The notes beneath the pieces are model-generated. The model was not told where the DNA came from, ran no database searches, and saw only the letters and a program-made list of their open reading frames with translations. Of a DNA stretch of 64,000 nt, positions 49,648 through 60,023 are shown one piece after another. The number at the start of each line of letters is the position of its first letter. Position 1 is the stretch's first letter. Source of the DNA: Rhodothermales bacterium (GTDB lineage Bacteria > Bacteroidota > Rhodothermia > Rhodothermales > UBA10348); the NCBI GenBank assembly GCA_024711125.1, contig JANJTM010000038.1, forward strand, positions 62,001 to 126,000, read 5' to 3'. Made by a program: the position numbers and the translations under genes.

Positions 49648-51381
49648 ATGATGACGAGGTGGATCCTCAAGGAGATCGATGACGCCGACACGGTATTCCG
49701 CCTGTCCCGCGATCTCAACGATCTCGCCGAGCCGCTCGCGCGCAGCCTGGTACTTCGCGGGGTGCGCACGCTTCCCGAGGCACGGGACTTCTTTCGGGCC
49801 GGCCTGTCAGCCCTGCACGACCCGTTTTCGATGAAGGACATGGGAGCGGCGGCGACGCGCGTGGCTGCCGCCATCCGCGCCCGTGAACGCGTGCTCGTAT
49901 ACGGCGACTACGACGTCGACGGGATCACCGCCACCGCGATGGTCACCCATTTCCTGAAGGAACGCGGCGTTCCGGCCACCTTCTTCATCCCCGACCGTCT
50001 GAAGCACGGCTACGGCCTGTGCGCGGCCGGGCTCGATCACGCCGTCGATCGACAGGCGTCGCTCGTCATTGCGCTCGATTGCGGGGTGTCGGCCAATGCG
50101 GAAGCGCTCTATGCCCGGGATCGGGGCCTGGACCTGGTGATCTGCGATCATCATACGCCCCCCGAGATCCTGCCGGACGCCATCGCCGTGCTGGATCCCA
50201 AGCGAGCCGACTGCGCATACCCGTGCAAGGAGCCCTGCGGGTGCGCCGTGGCGTTTCATCTCCTGCGTGCCGTCCTTGCCGAATTGGGCGAAGACCCTTC
50301 GTCGGTCCACGAGTACCTGGACCTCGTCGCGCTCGCCACGGCCAGCGATGTCGTGCCGATCGCGGGAGAAAACCGGATCCTGCTCCGGGAGGGGCTGGAG
50401 CGTCTTCGGCGTCGCGGTCGCCTCGGCATCGCGGCTCTCGCCGATGAGGCGCAGGTTCGGCTCGGCGAGTGCTCGACCCGCACGATCCTGTTCAGCCTGG
50501 GTCCCCGGATCAACGCGGCAGGTCGCCTGGGGGACGCGGGCCAGGCCGTGCACCTGCTCCTGTCTGACACGTCCCACGCGGCCGTCGCGCGGGCGCGTCA
50601 CCTCGAGCGCCTCAATTCGGAGCGCCGCACCATCGACCAGTCCACGCTCGACATGGCGTTGCGTGACGCGGAAGACTGGGAAGAGCGATCGCCAGGGTCG
50701 GCGCTGGTCCTCTATGACCCGTCGTGGCATATCGGCGTCGTCGGAATCGTGGCGAGTCGACTCGTGGAGCGCTATCGGCGCCCGGTCGTGCTGCTCGGAC
50801 TCAACGGGTCCGTCGCCAAGGGATCGGCCCGGTCGGTCGAAGGGCTGAACGTTTACGATGCCCTTTCGGCGTGCGCCGACGAACTCGAGGGTTTCGGGGG
50901 GCATGACCTCGCCGCCGGCCTCACGGTGCGGCCCGAACGCATCGACGGCTTTCGGACCCGGTTCGTCGAAGCCGTGGACGCCGCCCGCACCGCCGCGTCC
51001 GGCGATCGGCCCGTCACCTACGACGCCCACCTACGACTCTCGGAGATCGATGAGCGATTCCGGTCCGTTCTTCGCCAGTTCGAGCCGCACGGACCCGCCA
51101 ACGATCCGCCCGTCTTTGCCACGCGAGCCGTCGAAGTGACCGGCAATCCATCCGTCGTCGGCCGAAACCATCTCAAGTTCCGCGTTCGGGAGCCCGGATC
51201 GACGACGCCGTCGGTGGACGCGATCGGGTTCGGCCTCGGGGCCGAACTGCCGGTACTGGAGGAAAGTCTGCGGTCCGGTCGGACCATCGACCTGGCCCAC
51301 TCGGTCACCGACAACGACTGGAACGGCCGCCGGACCCTGCAATTGTCCGTGGGCGCGGTTCGCTTCAGTCTGCCAGACTGA
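49648..51381 (+). CDS. recJ: Single-stranded-DNA-specific exonuclease RecJ
   Basis: A 577-residue 5'-3' ssDNA exonuclease of the DHH phosphoesterase family. Motif I is VLVYGDYDVDGITATAM near residue 82, and the DHH motif is VICDHHTPPEILPDA near 163. NAAGRLGDAG is motif IV, and the DHHA1 region GIVASRLVERYRRPVVLL...GSARSVEGLNVYDAL...FGGHDLAAGL contains the GGH motif. The C-terminal OB-fold is present, so the length is normal. The ATG at 49648 is used; an adjacent ATG (49651) is equivalent. Its end overlaps the converging arsR-type gene by 17 bases. Confidence 0.95.
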   Translation: MMTRWILKEIDDADTVFRLSRDLNDLAEPLARSLVLRGVRTLPEARDFFRAGLSALHDPFSMKDMGAAATRVAAAIRARERVLVYGDYDVDGITATAMVTHFLKERGVPATFFIPDRLKHGYGLCAAGLDHAVDRQASLVIALDCGVSANAEALYARDRGLDLVICDHHTPPEILPDAIAVLDPKRADCAYPCKEPCGCAVAFHLLRAVLAELGEDPSSVHEYLDLVALATASDVVPIAGENRILLREGLERLRRRGRLGIAALADEAQVRLGECSTRTILFSLGPRINAAGRLGDAGQAVHLLLSDTSHAAVARARHLERLNSERRTIDQSTLDMALRDAEDWEERSPGSALVLYDPSWHIGVVGIVASRLVERYRRPVVLLGLNGSVAKGSARSVEGLNVYDALSACADELEGFGGHDLAAGLTVRPERIDGFRTRFVEAVDAARTAASGDRPVTYDAHLRLSEIDERFRSVLRQFEPHGPANDPPVFATRAVEVTGNPSVVGRNHLKFRVREPGSTTPSVDAIGFGLGAELPVLEESLRSGRTIDLAHSVTDNDWNGRRTLQLSVGAVRFSLPD

Positions 51382-51715
51382 GTACGCGGCCGGTCGGCAT
51401 TTCCTCCGACAGCTCTTCCTTGAGCTGTCCGCACATCAGCGTGCAGACGGCGATGAGGGTCGGATCCTCGACGCGGTACACGACGCGGCTCCCCTGTCGG
51501 CGCCGGGCCACGAGTCCCTCCCGGTTGAGCACGGCCAGGTGCTTGGATGCGCTCGGCTGTCGCTGATCCGTGGCTTCGGCCAGCTGCTGAACGCACTGCT
51601 CTCCGCCCGAAAGCAACCTGTTGACCAGGTCCAGACGGGCCGGGACGGCGAGCACCGCGAATCGGCGGGCCAGGCGGTCGGTCCACTCGCGCGGAATGGG
51701 TTCCTTGCGTGCCAT
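51365..51715 (-). CDS. ArsR-family repressor, probable sulfide/persulfide sensor
   Basis: A 116-residue winged-helix regulator. The recognition region is CVQQLAEATDQRQPSASKHLAVLNREGLV, and the wing is RRRQGSRVVYRVED. Cysteines are at 41, 91 and 95. Cys41 falls in the alpha2-alpha3 region and the other two in the last helix, a layout that could form a redox disulfide or tetrasulfide as described for BigR and SqrR, or a metal site as in classical ArsR. It is divergent from the YeeE/YedE-persulfide dioxygenase operon, which parallels the BigR regulon, so a persulfide-sensing role is the best inference. The signal is not shown by sequence alone. Confidence 0.85.
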   Translation of the reverse strand: MARKEPIPREWTDRLARRFAVLAVPARLDLVNRLLSGGEQCVQQLAEATDQRQPSASKHLAVLNREGLVARRRQGSRVVYRVEDPTLIAVCTLMCGQLKEELSEEMPTGRVLSLAD

Positions 51716-51888
51716 GGGTTCAGAACGTTGATTCTTCCGCGGGAATACCCGGTGATCCGTTCGCGCGAGGCCACGCCGCAGTCTGGCCTTGTCGTTGTCG
51801 TTGGCAGAAATGGACTTGCGGGTTCACGCCCACCTCTTCCGGGTCGAAGGACCGCCACCGACCGGAGCCCGCGCGTATTCCCCGTAAC

Positions 51889-51924
51889 GAATATACAAAT
51901 TCGGACACCACTTGTCATTACAAG
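51889..51924. promoter_or_regulatory. Candidate ArsR-type operator with two dyads
   Basis: Two AT-rich inverted repeats lie in the divergent intergenic region. GAATATACAAATTC (51889-51902) has GAAT/ATTC arms, and CTTGTCATTACAAG (51911-51924) has perfect 5-base arms. The second covers the putative -33 element of the plus-strand promoter. They are the obvious candidate sites for the divergent ArsR-type protein. Confidence 0.5.
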
Positions 51925-51942
51925 ACAGAACAACTAATTTAC
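51912..51942 (+). promoter_or_regulatory. Putative promoter of the sulfur operon
   Basis: TTG at 51912-51914, a 20-base spacer, then TAATTTAC at 51935-51942. This compares with the Bacteroidota pattern TTG-N19-21-TAnnTTTG. The -33 part lies within the CTTGT/ACAAG dyad, so the repressor would block it. A leader of ~25 bases would precede the first gene. Confidence 0.45.
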
Positions 51943-51971
51943 CGGTCCAACCACCCGCACCGAATCCCTCG

Positions 51972-52532
51972 ATGCCCGAATTCCTCACGCAACCCTGGCC
52001 CTGGTACGTCGCCGGTCCCGCGATCGGGATCGTCGTCCCGGCCCTCCTCCTTATCGGAGGCAAGCAGTTCGGTGTTTCGGAGAACCTGAGGCACCTGTGC
52101 GCCGCCACCTTTCCAGGCGACGTCCCCTTCCTCAAGTATGACTGGAAGAAGGCCGGCCTCTGGAACCTCGTCTTTGTGCTCGGATCCATCGTCGGAGCCT
52201 TCCTGGCTTCTTCGGTCGTTTCCGGCCCCGTGACCGTCGACATCTCGGCCGCGACCCGCGCCGACCTCGCGGCGCTGGGGATCGCTGACTTCACCGGCCT
52301 TGCGCCCACCGAGATCTTCAGCTTCTCGAATCTCGTCTCCTTCAAGGGCCTGGTCTTCATCGTTCTCGGCGGCTTCCTCGTCGGTTTTGGCGCCCGGTGG
52401 GCCGGCGGCTGCACGTCCGGCCACGCCATCAGCGGGCTGGCCGACATGCAGGCCCCCTCCCTCGTCGCCGTCCTCGGGTTTTTCGCCGGCGGCCTGATCG
52501 TGACGCACCTCCTCTACCCCCTCCTCTTCTGA
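51972..52532 (+). CDS. YeeE/YedE family sulfur transporter subunit (PmpA-like)
   Basis: A 186-residue membrane protein with about four to five membrane segments. The signature GARWAGGCTSGHAISGLADM, with its conserved cysteine, is the YeeE/YedE motif tied to thiosulfate/sulfur-compound import (as in TsuA) and to the PmpA/PmpB pair of BigR-regulated operons. ATG 51972 (MPEFLTQPWPWYVAG) is chosen over an upstream in-frame ATG at 51912, which lies in the promoter region. The partner subunit starts four bases after its stop. Probable role: uptake or export of a sulfane-sulfur compound. Confidence 0.88.
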   Translation: MPEFLTQPWPWYVAGPAIGIVVPALLLIGGKQFGVSENLRHLCAATFPGDVPFLKYDWKKAGLWNLVFVLGSIVGAFLASSVVSGPVTVDISAATRADLAALGIADFTGLAPTEIFSFSNLVSFKGLVFIVLGGFLVGFGARWAGGCTSGHAISGLADMQAPSLVAVLGFFAGGLIVTHLLYPLLF

Positions 52533-55424: not shown

Positions 55425-57110
55425 GTGAAGCGCGTCGACCTCCCGATACTCCGGTGGATCCCCGCCTATTCGTCTGACGACGCCCGGGGAGACCTGGCCG
55501 CGGGCCTCACGATCGGCGTGATGCTCGTGCCGCAGAGCATGGCCTACGCCATCCTGGCCGGAGTACCGGCCATCTACGGCCTGTACGCCTCGCTGGTGCC
55601 CCTGCTCGTGTACGTCGTGCTGGGCACGTCCCGCCACCTGGCCGTCGGCATCACGGCACTGGACAGCCTCATCGTCATCGCAGCGCTGTCTGCCATCGCC
55701 GATCCGTTTTCGGATGGCTTCGTCGGTCTCGCGCTCCTTCTTGCCGTGATGGCGGGCACGATCCAGGTCGCGATGGGCCTGGCACGCTTCGGGTTCGTCG
55801 TCGCCCTGCTGTCCCGGCCGGTAATCTCCGGTTTCACCGCGGCCGCCGCGGTCACCATCGGCATCTCCCAGATCGAAAGCCTGCTTGGGCTCTCGCTCGT
55901 GGGACCTTCGGACGTCTTCTCGACCCTCTTCGAGACCGCGACGACCCTGGGTCGCGTGGAACCCGTTTCGGCGATCATCGGAATCGCCGGCATCGTGTTG
56001 TTGCTCGTCCTGCGGCGGTTCGCCCCCCGACTCCCGGCCCCGCTGCTCGCCGTCGTCGCCGCAACGGCCGCCGTGCATCTGCTGGGCCTGACCTCGTACG
56101 GGGTGAGCGTCGTGGGCGACGTTCCGACCGGCCTTCCCGCGCCGACCCTGCCCCGAATCGACCTCGGTCACGTCCGACAGTTGCTCCCGGCGGCCATAAC
56201 CCTGTCGCTCGTGCAGTTCATGAGCGTGATTTCGCTCGGAAAGGTCTTCGCGGCGCGGCACGGCTACCGGGTGGATCCGAACCGGGAGTTGGTCGCTTTG
56301 GGGGCCTTGAACGTCCTGGGTGCCGTTTTCCGCAGTGTGCCCGTTTCGGGAAGCTTCTCCCGCAGCGCGGTCGGTGAACGGGCGGGGGGCCGCACTGCCA
56401 TGGCCAACGCGGTCGCAGCTGCCGTCGTCGCACTCACGCTCCTCTTCCTTACGCCGCTCTTTCGATCCCTACCGGTGCCGGTGCTGGCTTCCATCATCAT
56501 CGTCGCCGCCTTCGGGATGGTGGACGTGGCCGAGCTTCGAACGCTGCTCAGGGCGAAGCGAATCGACGGACTGATCGCTCTGCTGACCTTCGTGGCAACG
56601 ATCATCCTCGGAATCCAGAACGGCGTGATCGTCGGCATCTTCGCCTCGGTCGTCGCGATCCTGCTTCGCATCAGCCGCCCGCACGTTGCGGAACTGGGGC
56701 GCCTCCCCGGTACCTCCGCCTTCCGCAATCTCGCCCGCAACCCCTCGGCCGAACGGGTTCCGGGACTTCACATCGTGCGTTTCGATGCGTCGCTCGGCTT
56801 TGCCAATGCCGATTTCCTCGATGAGTACCTGACCGGCACGGCCGTCGCGGATCCGACGGTACACACCGTGCTCGTGGATGCCTCGAGCGTAAACGACCTC
56901 GACATGACGGCGGCGGGCGTACTGCTCGAAACGAGTCGACGGCTGTCGGCCGCCGGACGCCGCCTGGCGTTCTTCGGCGTGAAGGGTCCCGTTCGCGACG
57001 TGATGCAGGCGGCAGGTCTCACCGAGGCCCTGGGCGCAGACGCCCTGTTTCTCGACGGGGAGGCGGCCGCGGCGTGCCTGTCGCGATCCACGGGTGACCG
57101 ATCAGCCTGA
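55425..57110 (+). CDS. SulP-family anion permease with STAS domain
   Basis: A 561-residue SLC26/SulP transporter. The signature region LAAGLTIGVMLVPQSMAYAILAGVPAIYGLYASLVPLLVY is near the N terminus. About ten further membrane segments follow, and then a C-terminal STAS domain (~440-555) with VDASSVNDLDMTAAGVLLE. The start is GTG 55425. Substrates in this family are sulfate, bicarbonate and related anions. In an operon ending persulfide oxidation, sulfate or sulfite movement is the natural guess, and SulP genes also occur in BigR-type operons. Its last 9 bases overlap the converging TorD-like gene. Confidence 0.9.
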   Translation: MKRVDLPILRWIPAYSSDDARGDLAAGLTIGVMLVPQSMAYAILAGVPAIYGLYASLVPLLVYVVLGTSRHLAVGITALDSLIVIAALSAIADPFSDGFVGLALLLAVMAGTIQVAMGLARFGFVVALLSRPVISGFTAAAAVTIGISQIESLLGLSLVGPSDVFSTLFETATTLGRVEPVSAIIGIAGIVLLLVLRRFAPRLPAPLLAVVAATAAVHLLGLTSYGVSVVGDVPTGLPAPTLPRIDLGHVRQLLPAAITLSLVQFMSVISLGKVFAARHGYRVDPNRELVALGALNVLGAVFRSVPVSGSFSRSAVGERAGGRTAMANAVAAAVVALTLLFLTPLFRSLPVPVLASIIIVAAFGMVDVAELRTLLRAKRIDGLIALLTFVATIILGIQNGVIVGIFASVVAILLRISRPHVAELGRLPGTSAFRNLARNPSAERVPGLHIVRFDASLGFANADFLDEYLTGTAVADPTVHTVLVDASSVNDLDMTAAGVLLETSRRLSAAGRRLAFFGVKGPVRDVMQAAGLTEALGADALFLDGEAAAACLSRSTGDRSA

Positions 57111-58061
57111 TTCCCGGAGCCGTTCGCGCATTTCGGCCAATACGGCACGGGTGCCGACGAGGCGCTCCGTCCAGGCCGCAGCCCAGGCTTCGACCCCCGG
57201 CGCGCGGTCCAGGTCGGCCCACCCCTGCGCATTGCGGGCGGCCAGTGCGTCGAGGCGATCGAAGACGGGACCGAGACCGTCGTAAAGCGCCGCGCTTCGC
57301 AGCACGTTTTCCATCATGAGGCGTCTGCCCCCGAAACCTCCCGGCATCCCGGCGTCGTGCGCGAGAAACGCGAGGTCGCCCCTTCCGATGTAGAATCCGC
57401 AGCGCACCGGGGTCGTCAGGAACGATGCGATCTCCCGGACTCCCGTGCGATCGTCGTCCATGATGGAATGCACGGCTCCGAGGTCGGCCCGACCCGCTCC
57501 ACCGGCCGATCCGAGACGGATCGCGATGCGGCGCCGCTGCTCCAGCAACCAGTCCAGGAGAAACCGGACGGCGGGGCCATAGGCCGTGCTCCGTTCCGCG
57601 GCAAACACGAACGGGGGGAGCCATGCCAGCAGGTGGCCATCGAGAAATCCTGCCGCGTCGATCGCACCCCGGGGACCGCCTTCGAGCAGGAAGGCCAGGA
57701 AACGAAGCTCCGACGCGAGGTGGTCGGGACGCAGATCGTTCGATGCCGGCTCGAAACCCGCCTCCAGGAAACGCTGGGCGATGGTGTCCGGGGACCGACC
57801 CCCGTCTTCCGAATCGTCCAGGAAGACCCCTGCATACGGCAGGAGGTTGAACCCGAAGACCTCCTGGTGCGCTGCGGCGTCGCCGTCCGGGTCCCCGGTT
57901 CCCGGCCACAATTCCGCGAGTTCGGGGAACGCATGCCACGCGTCCCCTACCGATGCGGTCGGACCGGCATCCAGGAGATCGGCCAGGAGACGGATCACCC
58001 GGGCGCCGGCAACGAACTCGGCTCCCGCCGGAACCTCGGAATCCGGGCCCCGAGGGCTCAT
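57102..58061 (-). CDS. TorD/DmsD-like molybdoenzyme chaperone
   Basis: A 319-residue all-helical protein. The N-terminal ~190 residues fit the TorD-like pattern (RVIRLLADLLDAG..., EVFGFNLLPYAGVFLD, LRPDHLASELRFLAFLL). The PYAGVFLD and LRPDHLASEL blocks correspond to the Y/F-x-x-L/V-F and P-D-H-x-x-x-E/L chaperone motifs. The C-terminal ~120 residues (RTGVREIASFLTTPVRCGFYIGRGDLAFLA...) form an extension often found in chaperones for complex-iron-sulfur molybdoenzymes. It is the last gene of the molybdoenzyme operon, overlapping the SQR stop by four bases, and probably assists cofactor loading of the large subunit. Confidence 0.8.
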   Translation of the reverse strand: MSPRGPDSEVPAGAEFVAGARVIRLLADLLDAGPTASVGDAWHAFPELAELWPGTGDPDGDAAAHQEVFGFNLLPYAGVFLDDSEDGGRSPDTIAQRFLEAGFEPASNDLRPDHLASELRFLAFLLEGGPRGAIDAAGFLDGHLLAWLPPFVFAAERSTAYGPAVRFLLDWLLEQRRRIAIRLGSAGGAGRADLGAVHSIMDDDRTGVREIASFLTTPVRCGFYIGRGDLAFLAHDAGMPGGFGGRRLMMENVLRSAALYDGLGPVFDRLDALAARNAQGWADLDRAPGVEAWAAAWTERLVGTRAVLAEMRERLRESG

Positions 58062-59263
58062 ACGCGGCCCCGCAGCATGCCGTGCCAGTAGAGATCAGGA
58101 AGCACGTAGCACTTCAGGGCATACATGCTGTACCGCTCCTGCGACGTATCGAACGGGAAGGACGGCATCGGGCGATTGTCCCAGTCGAACTCGGCCAGGA
58201 CCAGCTTGCCGTACCCCGTGACCAGCGGGCAGGACGTGTAGCCGTCGTAGAGTTCCGGGTGCCTGAGGGAGCCCTCCCGCATGACCTGCAGGAGGTTCGC
58301 CGCAACGACCGGCGCCTGCTTGCGCACGGCCGCGCCCGTCTTGGCGACGGGCACCGACGAGGCGTCCCCTAGGCCGAAGATCTCGGGATAACGAACGTGC
58401 TGCAGGGTTTCCCGCTTCACGTCGATCCATCCGTCGGCGTTCGCGACCGCACTGCGCTTGATGAAGTCGGGGGCGCTCTGGTGCGGCACCACGTGCAGCA
58501 TGTCGAAATCGACCGTCTGCTCGGTCCTGGCCCCGGTTGCGGGATCGGTCACGCGGAACGTCGCCTTCTGCTCGGGCCCGCGCACCGCCACGAGTTCCGT
58601 GTGCAGGCGGAAGTCGATACCGTACCGGGCGATGACCTTGCGCAGGGTTTTCGCGAAGTACTCGACGCCGAATACCATCGTACCGGGATTGGCGAACATG
58701 ACCTCGGTGCGGCCGAGCGCGCCCGTCCGGCGCAGGTGGTCGGCCGCCAGGTACATGATCTTCTGGGGCGCTCCACCGCACTTCAGCGGCGTGGGCGTCG
58801 AGGTGAAGATGGCGCGCCCGGATCGCACGGACTGCAGCACCTCCCACGTGTAGGGTACGATGTCGTAGGAGTAGTTCGACGTGACTCCGTTCTTTCCCAG
58901 GGTATCCGTAAGCCCGTCGATCTTGTGCCAGTCGATCTGGATGCCGGGGCAAAGGACCAGGTACTCGTACGATACCGTCGCTCCGGACGACAGGGTTACC
59001 CGGCGGGCGTCGGCGTCCAGCGCATCCACCCGGTCCCGGATCCAGTCGGCGCCGTCCGGGATGAAATCCGCTTCGTCGCGTTCCGAGATCTCCCGGTCGA
59101 ATACGCCGGCGCCGACGAGTGTCCAGATGGGCTGGTAGTAATGCTTGTCCGAAGGCTCGACGATGCCGACGTCCAGCGAAGGATCCTCCGCGAGCAGCCG
59201 CGCCGCCACGGTGAGCCCGGCAGCTCCTCCGCCGACGATCAGGATTCGATATGCGTCTTTCAT
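58058..59263 (-). CDS. sqr: Sulfide:quinone oxidoreductase, type II-like
   Basis: A 401-residue FAD-dependent enzyme of the DSR superfamily, oxidising sulfide and reducing membrane quinone. The FAD loop is ILIVGGGAAGLTVAARL. Candidate active-site cysteines are Cys162 (TPLKCGGAPQK) and Cys345 (GYTSCPLVTGYGK). Their sequence context and spacing resemble human SQOR (type II) rather than bacterial type I. The second FAD contact EIFGLGDASSVPVAKTGAAVRKQAP is present. A C-terminal hydrophobic/aromatic stretch (ALKCYVLPDLYWHGMLRG) could attach it to the membrane. The gene lies 19 bases after the DUF1641 gene and overlaps the TorD-like gene. Confidence 0.9.
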   Translation of the reverse strand: MKDAYRILIVGGGAAGLTVAARLLAEDPSLDVGIVEPSDKHYYQPIWTLVGAGVFDREISERDEADFIPDGADWIRDRVDALDADARRVTLSSGATVSYEYLVLCPGIQIDWHKIDGLTDTLGKNGVTSNYSYDIVPYTWEVLQSVRSGRAIFTSTPTPLKCGGAPQKIMYLAADHLRRTGALGRTEVMFANPGTMVFGVEYFAKTLRKVIARYGIDFRLHTELVAVRGPEQKATFRVTDPATGARTEQTVDFDMLHVVPHQSAPDFIKRSAVANADGWIDVKRETLQHVRYPEIFGLGDASSVPVAKTGAAVRKQAPVVAANLLQVMREGSLRHPELYDGYTSCPLVTGYGKLVLAEFDWDNRPMPSFPFDTSQERYSMYALKCYVLPDLYWHGMLRGRV

Positions 59264-59282
59264 GGTCTGGACAGGAACGGGG

Positions 59283-59987
59283 TCAACGGGAAAGTGCCGG
59301 CTCGGTGCGGCGACGCGCGACTTCGGCGGCGTGCCGGGTCTTCATCTCCTGCCCGAAGAAACGGGCTACGTTGATGAGGAATGCGAGCCCGGTCTGTACG
59401 TCGTGATCGCCGAGCATTCGCAGGGCCTTGAGCGGCGTGTACCGGCGTGGTGCGGGCAAGGTCATGCACTCCTCGAAGCAGGAAACGAGCGCTCCGCCGA
59501 GCATTCCGACGATGGACACCGCGCCGGGCTGCAGCACGCGTGTGAGCCCGTCCACGGTCGCCTCGGCGGTCATGATCTCGCCCAGTTCAAGCGTCGAGCG
59601 CAGCCGGGAATCGATGTCGATGCCGGACTCCTGGATGCGCGCGGCGATTCCGTCCACGGTATCGGCCACCATCGACACGAAGCCGGGTGCCTGGCCGGCC
59701 ATGGACATCGCGTTCTCCAGGCCCGCGAGCGTCGACGGTTCGGTCAGCTGCTCCAGGAGCCGGAGTCCGGCCGCGAGCCGCTCGTCGACGTCGATGCCGC
59801 GGGCCTGCAGAGCGGCCACGTGCCCGTCGATCGCGTCGACCACCGTGGACGCGACCGCAGGCGCCTGGGCCGACATCTCGCGCAGGATCGACACCTGGTC
59901 TTCCAGGCGTCCCATTCGCTCGTTCAGCCGATCGAGGGCCGCAGCTATGCCCTGGAGATCGGCCGGTGTTGGCGTTTCACCGGTCAT
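59283..59987 (-). CDS. DUF1641 protein
   Basis: A 234-residue, mostly helical soluble protein. It shows an internal repeated pattern: PAVASTVVDAIDGHVAALQARGIDVDERLAAGLRLLEQL is echoed by PGFVSMVADTVDGIAARIQESGIDIDSRLRSTLELGEIM. The conserved DUF1641 end is PLKALRMLGDHDVQTGLAFLINVARFFGQEM. DUF1641 proteins are regularly encoded beside sulfide:quinone oxidoreductases and some formate dehydrogenases, but no biochemical role is established. The ATG at 59987 is used (a GTG immediately precedes it). It lies between the molybdoenzyme and SQR genes. Confidence 0.85.
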   Translation of the reverse strand: MTGETPTPADLQGIAAALDRLNERMGRLEDQVSILREMSAQAPAVASTVVDAIDGHVAALQARGIDVDERLAAGLRLLEQLTEPSTLAGLENAMSMAGQAPGFVSMVADTVDGIAARIQESGIDIDSRLRSTLELGEIMTAEATVDGLTRVLQPGAVSIVGMLGGALVSCFEECMTLPAPRRYTPLKALRMLGDHDVQTGLAFLINVARFFGQEMKTRHAAEVARRRTEPALSR

Positions 59988-60023
59988 CACATCCCTTGGA
60001 TTCTTGCGTTGGAGCGAAGATCG

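What the first reader, a model, noticed from the sequence alone, without database searches (positions are those of the whole stretch)
51885..51945. Dyad operator overlapping the promoter of the sulfur operon, beside a three-cysteine ArsR protein
CTTGTCATTACAAG sits on the -33 element and a second dyad GAATATACAAATTC lies 8 bases away. The divergent repressor has Cys41, Cys91 and Cys95. The gene arrangement mirrors the BigR/SqrR regulons, but the C-terminal Cys pair differs from what I recall of BigR (one Cys there). It may be a new variant of persulfide-sensing ArsR protein.
Basis: partly seen in the sequence, partly recalled or inferred. Interest (0 to 1): 0.5.

Follow-up and report, generated by a model that had tools for sequence, protein, structure and literature searches.

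The report
Two operators beside a sulfur operon
The DNA in front of a bacterial sulfur-handling operon carries two separate control sites: one fits the neighbouring ArsR-type repressor, and the other, the site first noticed, probably belongs to a different, GntR-type regulator shared by related bacteria.

Summary
The dyad CTTGTCATTACAAG (51911-51924) and the three-cysteine ArsR are real, but probably do not belong together. CTTGTNATNACAAG has 62 sites in 60 genomes of the order (own included) against 5 for the reversed control. Its core TGTNATNACA lies in 25 of 30 promoters of the orthologous operon that show no ArsR beside them, and in 5 of 17 that do. The core also precedes a GntR/HutC-type regulator gene in 22 of 44 promoters examined. 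The window's genome encodes that protein 18 kb away, outside the window; it is my best candidate for the dyad. The ArsR's own operator is most likely GTATTCCCCGTAACGAATAT (51875-51894), which fits the SqrR site ATTC-N8-GAAT; its motif is found in 16 of 17 ArsR-linked promoters. Cys91 and Cys95 occur in all 16 syntenic relatives and Cys41 in none. Neither cysteine of the BigR/SqrR/YgaV/HlyU pair is present. The operon resembles BigR operons, but the sensor chemistry must differ and is untested. Against the GntR link: two genomes keep four dyads each without the gene, and 54 further genomes showed no association. Binding and signals are inferred.

The parts
51365..51715 (-). ArsR-family repressor gene, 116 aa; Cys41 before helix 3, Cys91 and Cys95 in helix 5
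   Evidence: PF01022 39.8 bits over the cut-off 22; NF033788 77.4 over 55; translation; model
51729..51748 (.). weak second copy of the ArsR-type site, 14 bp before the arsR start codon; possible autoregulation
   Evidence: one-mismatch match to TATTC-N8-GAATA; PWM score only 2.5, and 1.03 with 42 better positions in the window when the window is left out of training
51875..51894 (.). most likely ArsR operator, GTATTCCCCGTAACGAATAT (contains ATTC-N8-GAAT)
   Evidence: palindromic motif of ArsR-linked promoters; TATTC-N8-GAATA has one perfect match in the genome
   Evidence: present, not conserved in relatives (by eye)
51911..51924 (.). reported dyad CTTGTCATTACAAG; predicted site of a GntR/HutC regulator, overlapping a possible -33 element
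51930..51934 (+). third half-site ACAAC, a 10-bp direct repeat of the ACAAG half of the dyad
   Evidence: ACAA at this spacing in 21 of 30 core-bearing YedE1 promoters
51972..52532 (+). YedE1: YeeE/YedE-type sulfur transport half protein
   Evidence: PF04143
52536..52991 (+). YedE2: second half, DUF6691
   Evidence: PF04143 and PF20398
53027..54472 (+). MBL-fold plus rhodanese protein
   Evidence: PF00753 and PF00581
54544..54921 (+). thioredoxin
   Evidence: PF00085
54972..55361 (+). 129-aa secreted cysteine-rich protein, HiPIP-like by eye
   Evidence: no Pfam family at 0.001; the label is my reading
55425..57110 (+). SulP-type sulfate permease
   Evidence: PF00916 and STAS; TIGR00815 over its cut-off

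Best explanation
The intergenic region carries two independent operators for one sulfur operon. Site 1 (51875-51894, perhaps with a weak twin at 51729-51748 beside arsR) is bound by the divergent ArsR, which represses YedE1-YedE2-MBL-rhodanese-Trx-SulP and perhaps itself; a sulfur-linked signal acting at the conserved helix-5 cysteines Cys91 and Cys95 would release it. Site 2 (the reported dyad CTTGTCATTACAAG, 51911-51924, overlapping the possible -33 box) is bound by a GntR/HutC-family regulator encoded 18 kb away at contig 49:132379-133182, outside the window. Shown by computation: conservation of both sites, their different distribution, the cysteine pattern, the gene order. Inferred: which protein binds which site, repression, and the signals.
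For: Dyad: 62 sites in 60 genomes against 5 reversed. Of 47 YedE1 promoters, the core TGTNATNACA is in 25 of 30 with no ArsR hit in the fetched locus and in 5 of 17 with one; shuffles predict 0.15 and 0.06; Fisher p 3.9e-4. The core precedes the GntR gene in 22 of 44 promoters examined, twice in 11. The GntR is present in 40 of the genomes with YedE1 and on the same contig within about 40 kb of it in 18 of these 40 (coordinates), and near sulfur genes in G029, G032, G033, G035, G053. Site 1: palindromic motif with log-likelihood 136.6 against 39.6-50.5 in five shuffled sets; best score at least 10.8 in 16 of 17 ArsR-linked and 1 of 30 other promoters; left out of training, the window's site is second of 63,981 positions. 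Cysteines: C91 and C95 in 16 of 16 syntenic relatives, but both in only 5 of 14 non-syntenic ones.
Against: The own GntR promoter lacks the core. G043 (99% complete) and G024 (85%) keep four dyads each with no GntR hit at 1e-5; G088 and G031 have one dyad and no hit. In 54 further genomes dyad and GntR are not associated (3, 1, 25, 25; p 0.61). 12 of 17 YedE1 promoters without the core belong to genomes with the GntR. Site 1 scores 10.8, the lowest of the 16, and drops to 6.48, behind one chance site at 7.08, when left out; apart from the five left-out tests the promoter scores are in-sample. No binding data exist.
Confidence: 0.6

Rival explanations
1. One reading: the ArsR is a BigR-like persulfide sensor and binds CTTGTCATTACAAG at the promoter.
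For: Adjacency, overlap with a possible -33 box, sulfur genes, and five ArsR-linked promoters (window included) that do carry the core.
Against: Core kept in 25 of 30 promoters without an ArsR beside them and missing from 12 of 17 with one. A different palindrome tracks the ArsR. Both BigR/SqrR cysteines are absent.
Confidence: 0.1
2. The dyad belongs to a third regulator, neither the ArsR nor the GntR; the GntR is merely one of its targets.
For: G043 and G024 have dyads without a GntR hit; the own GntR promoter lacks the core; no association in 54 further genomes. A promoter site before a regulator gene does not prove self-control.
Against: Core before the GntR gene in 22 of 44 promoters, twice in 11; GntR present in 29 of 30 genomes with a core-bearing YedE1 promoter; in G053 dyad, GntR and MBL-rhodanese follow each other. 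No other regulator family was screened for.
Confidence: 0.25
3. The ArsR senses a metal or metalloid (arsenite, antimonite or a thiophilic cation) or an oxidant at the helix-5 cysteines rather than sulfane sulfur.
For: Atypical As(III) sensors take their cysteine ligands from helix 5 (cluster 5 in PMC10509353, passage). The closest sequences and folds of known structure include SmtB, an As(III) ArsR and an antimony repressor. The Rubrobacter CxxxC homologue lies divergent to another ArsR and a P-type ATPase. A cyanobacterial CxxxC homologue lies among psbA- and heme-oxygenase-like genes, not sulfur genes (my reading).
Against: In 16 syntenic loci the divergent genes are sulfur genes, and no Pfam-tested gene of the window cluster is a metal or arsenic transporter. 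The full cysteine pair is kept in 16 of 16 syntenic but 5 of 14 non-syntenic relatives. The Rubrobacter homologue heads a sulfur transferase, TauE and MBL operon.
Confidence: 0.3

Closest known systems
BigR / SqrR / YgaV / HlyU / SoxR persulfide-sensing ArsR proteins
   Same: ArsR fold, sulfur gene neighbourhood (a named Sinorhizobium bigR lies between blh and two YeeE/YedE genes), operator of the form ATTC-N8-GAAT as given for SqrR (PMC9774250 passage)
   Different: Neither of the two bridge cysteines is present: N32 and K99 stand there. Separate side of the tree, 92/83. BigR equivalog score 39.7 against a cut-off of 155
PigS of Serratia with pmpA/pmpB/blhA
   Same: ArsR repressor tied to sulfide metabolism genes (PMC10509353 passage) and paired YeeE-type PmpAB proteins (PMC12423496 passage); the divergent gene order is recalled
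   Different: PigS is placed in the persulfide cluster with the two-cysteine site; its sequence was not compared here
RexT, H2O2-sensing ArsR of cyanobacteria
   Same: ArsR fold with cysteine chemistry
   Different: RexT uses adjacent Cys40-Cys41 in helix 3 (PMC8960804 passages); the window has a single cysteine there and its relatives none
YvoA / DasR / HutC, GntR-family regulators with a UTRA domain
   Same: Candidate GntR has PF00392 and PF07702; best solved relative YvoA, E 3e-38. TTGT-N4-ACAA geometry is recalled from TreR
   Different: Below the cut-off of each of the 25 NCBIfam families listed, HutC 140.9 against 220; predicted sites lie before sulfur genes

Membership tests
ArsR/SmtB family | HTH_5 domain and metalloregulator subfamily score | tested here: met
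   PF01022 39.8 over 22; NF033788 77.4 over 55; ArsR-type folds lead the PDB search
BigR/SqrR persulfide-sensing ArsR | cysteine in helix 2 (YgaV Cys31 position) | tested here: not met
   N32 in the window; no cysteine there in the 15 syntenic relatives aligned
BigR/SqrR persulfide-sensing ArsR | second cysteine near the end of helix 5 (YgaV Cys98 position) | tested here: not met
   K99 in the window; no cysteine there in the 15 syntenic relatives aligned. C91 and C95 lie 8 and 4 residues earlier
BigR/SqrR persulfide-sensing ArsR | score of the BigR equivalog model | tested here: not met
   39.7 bits, cut-off 155; note that E. coli YgaV also scores only 59
BigR/SqrR persulfide-sensing ArsR | operator ATTC-N8-GAAT | tested here: inconclusive
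   sequence present at 51877-51892 within 51875-51894; binding not testable here
BigR/SqrR persulfide-sensing ArsR | polysulfide bridge and release by persulfide | not testable with these tools
   needs biochemistry
Canonical As(III) ArsR | CxC motif in helix 3 | tested here: not met
   window reads C41-V-Q; no cysteine at 43
GntR/HutC family (candidate for the dyad) | GntR HTH plus UTRA domain | tested here: met
   PF00392 62 bits and PF07702 126.8 bits, both over cut-off
GntR/HutC family (candidate for the dyad) | binds the CTTGTNATNACAAG dyad | not testable with these tools
   only comparative evidence for and against

The most novel reading that the evidence does not exclude
A GntR/HutC-type protein controls a sulfide/sulfane-sulfur regulon across families of one bacterial order through CTTGTNATNACAAG, a fourth regulator family for such genes beside ArsR, CsoR and Fis. 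At the same operon it alternates with, and in the window coexists with, an ArsR of a distinct helix-5 CxxxC type.
Probability: 0.45. Interest if true: 0.65.

Novelty: new variant of a known kind. Interest (0 to 1): 0.5.

Why it matters
PMC10509353 (passage) names three families of described persulfide-sensing regulators: ArsR, CsoR and Fis. If the pairing proposed here holds, sulfur genes in this order answer to a member of a fourth family, and one operon has switched between, or combined, two regulators, which makes regulator replacement directly testable. The ArsR would also show that a BigR-like gene neighbourhood does not imply BigR-like cysteines, so naming by neighbourhood would mislead. 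My searches of the held library for GntR/HutC with sulfide or persulfide, GntR with persulfide, regulon and YeeE and Rhodothermota with sulfide and transcriptional regulator listed nothing that I recognised as such a regulon; only listings were seen, and a GntR-rhodanese search was rejected and not repeated.

Tried and rejected
Chance inverted repeats: counting dyads alone shows nothing (3 observed, 2.8 expected), so the case rests on conservation. Cys41 as a shared part of the sensor: unlikely, absent from all 16 syntenic relatives. RNA hairpin instead of a DNA site: disfavoured, because ACTTGT-N4-ACAAGT has AT at the centre in 30 of 40 sites without that being imposed; it was not folded. Conserved thiol in the GntR: rejected, the Cys174/Cys176 pair occurs in part of the window's family and not in the own protein.

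Led nowhere: the genome-contig scan found three distant Solirubrobacterales ArsRs; one paper search for SqrR sites was flooded by unrelated papers; ArsR with CXXXC gave two copper/cadmium papers. In one search the 'DUF442' query was read in a wrong frame, so its single row is a self-hit and means nothing; that gene rests. Dropped before counts: near-duplicate G042 from motif training; a YedE1 fragment of G030 (contig 663) from the promoter table (47 of the 48 places used); eight ArsR rows (L036, L037, L038, L046, L048, L053, L058, L066) from the tree. In G056 the YedE1 start was probably set wrongly (TTG), which may explain its missing ArsR site.

Full report
What is there. The window lies in an unnamed 3.79 Mb genome (contig 49, 62001-126000). 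The order is not named by the tools; Rhodothermota is my guess, untested. The ArsR gene (51365-51715, minus) stands divergent to two YeeE/YedE halves, an MBL-rhodanese, a thioredoxin, a small cysteine-rich protein and a SulP permease. The reported dyad, the three cysteines and the coordinates are correct.

The arrangement is conserved. Of 60 genomes, 25 have an ArsR match at 1e-15. In 16 loci from 15 other genomes the ArsR is divergent to YedE1. In all 16, Cys91 and Cys95 are present and Cys41 is not (15 of them with the window are alignment A1). Among 14 non-syntenic relatives in the same call both cysteines are present in 5, one of the two in 8, neither in 1. The AlphaFold2 model (mean pLDDT 88.8) puts Cys91 and Cys95 in helix 5 (85-105) and Cys41 just before helix 3. 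Against E. coli YgaV, two named BigR proteins, a Rhodobacter protein between soxS and a YeeE gene (my label SoxR) and HlyU, the bridge-cysteine positions carry N32 and K99. These references fall on the other side of a branch of support 92/83 from the order's ArsRs; the window itself has a long branch and many forks are open. The helix-5 CxxxC is shared with an ArsR of Rubrobacter tropicus that heads a sulfur transferase-TauE-MBL operon and with a cyanobacterial protein among psbA-like and heme-oxygenase-like genes (my reading), so it is not exclusive to sulfur loci.

The ArsR operator. A palindromic motif search over 16 ArsR-linked intergenics gave ATAtaAC-N6-GTtaTAT (log-likelihood 136.6 at width 20 against 39.6-50.5 in five shuffled sets). 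Best scores of at least 10.8, the window's own value, occur in 16 of 17 ArsR-linked promoters and in 1 of 30 others. That one is G044, whose contig ends 376 bp upstream of YedE1, so an ArsR there could be missing from the assembly. These scores are in-sample. With the window left out of training its site scores 6.48, second of 63,981 positions behind 7.08; four other promoters left out in turn still gave best sites of 15.6, 14.6, 8.2 and 17.5. TATTC-N8-GAATA has one perfect match in the genome and 16 more with one mismatch, one of them at 51730-51747 beside arsR. ATTC-N8-GAAT is the site cited for SqrR in PMC9774250 (passages); the same paper reports one YgaV target, katG, without it.

The reported dyad has another distribution. 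CTTGTNATNACAAG has 62 sites in 60 genomes and the reversed control 5. Of 47 YedE1 promoters, 30 show no ArsR hit in the fetched locus and 25 of these carry the core TGTNATNACA; 17 have the ArsR and 5 of these, the window included, carry it. Shuffles predict 0.15 and 0.06; Fisher p 3.9e-4, with no correction for relatedness. In the window's family, 22 of 24 genomes with YedE1 have recJ directly upstream and no ArsR hit between, and 21 of these 22 carry the core. A third half-site, ACAA, follows at a 10-bp step in 21 of 30.

What the dyad precedes. I examined 61 of the 62 sites in wide loci and the last (G008 contig 3) only in a 3-kb locus. By tblastn: YedE1 18, MBL-rhodanese 4, SQR 3, SulP 1, NarJ-like 1. 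The second own copy lies 20 bp before a gene with a BLH_phosphatase domain. By eye only: rhodanese 3, and one each of sulfurtransferase-like, TauE-like, CoA-disulfide-reductase-like and cytochrome c. A GntR gene: 10 (8, two more from coordinates). Pyruvate dehydrogenase E1-like: 5 (by eye). The other 12 showed no clear theme.

The GntR candidate. A HutC-type GntR gene is found in 45 of 60 genomes, own included. Its promoter carries the core in 22 of 44 examined, twice in 11; the 45th, in G041, is a contig-end fragment. From the coordinates it lies on the same contig within about 40 kb of YedE1 in 18 of the 40 genomes that have both. It lies near sulfur genes in G029, G032, G033, G035 and G053. 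GntR is present in 29 of 30 genomes with a core-bearing YedE1 promoter and for 12 of 17 promoters without (p 0.018). Over 114 genomes of the order dyad and GntR are associated (both 31, dyad only 4, GntR only 42, neither 37; p 2.6e-4), but this comes from genomes already seen: in the 54 new ones the counts are 3, 1, 25, 25 (p 0.61). Against the link: G043 and G024 keep four dyads each without a GntR hit at 1e-5, and the own GntR promoter lacks the core, showing CAGGTAGATACGTGTATCGACCTG instead.

Reading. The operon is best seen as controlled by two regulators through two sites. That the dyad is not primarily the ArsR's site I hold at about 0.85; that 51875-51894 is the ArsR's site at about 0.75; that the GntR binds the dyad at about 0.65. 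Repression rather than activation, and the signals, are inferred. PMC10509353 (passages) describes known persulfide sensors as ArsR, CsoR and Fis types and the ArsR ones as having a helix-2/helix-5 cysteine pair. PMC12423496 and PMC10451225 (passages) describe sHdrR and SoxR with that pair; the former adds that many ArsRs near shdr genes lack it and may act differently, which fits this protein. PMC8960804 was read in passages. All other papers were seen only in search listings.

Noticed in passing
L087:7360-7373 (contig 18:13359-13372 of the own genome): The only other exact CTTGTNATNACAAG in the genome, 20 bp before a lipoprotein-like gene with a BLH_phosphatase (PF04273) domain.
   Followed up: yes
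L204, upstream of the own GntR gene (contig 49 near 133200): The own GntR promoter has a near-perfect palindrome CAGGTAGATACGTGTATCGACCTG instead of the dyad; it is divergent to an OMPP1/FadL-type outer membrane protein gene.
   Followed up: no
L100, L150, L153, L156, L158: The dyad also lies before pyruvate dehydrogenase E1-like genes, in four of the five divergent to a sigma-factor-like gene in the locus shown (by eye); why a sulfur-linked site should be there is unexplained.
   Followed up: no
GntR promoters, e.g. L134, L146, L151 and L174-L186: In 11 of 44 GntR promoters the core occurs twice; the copy nearer the gene often reads CYTGTNATNACACG.
   Followed up: partly
window 57102-59990, minus strand: A NarJ-like protein, a type III SQR-like oxidoreductase and a DUF1641 protein face the operon; in three relatives the dyad lies before the SQR gene, but not in the window.
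   Followed up: partly
window 51365-51381: The 3' ends of the recJ-like gene (49648-51381, plus) and arsR (minus) overlap by 17 bases.
   Followed up: no
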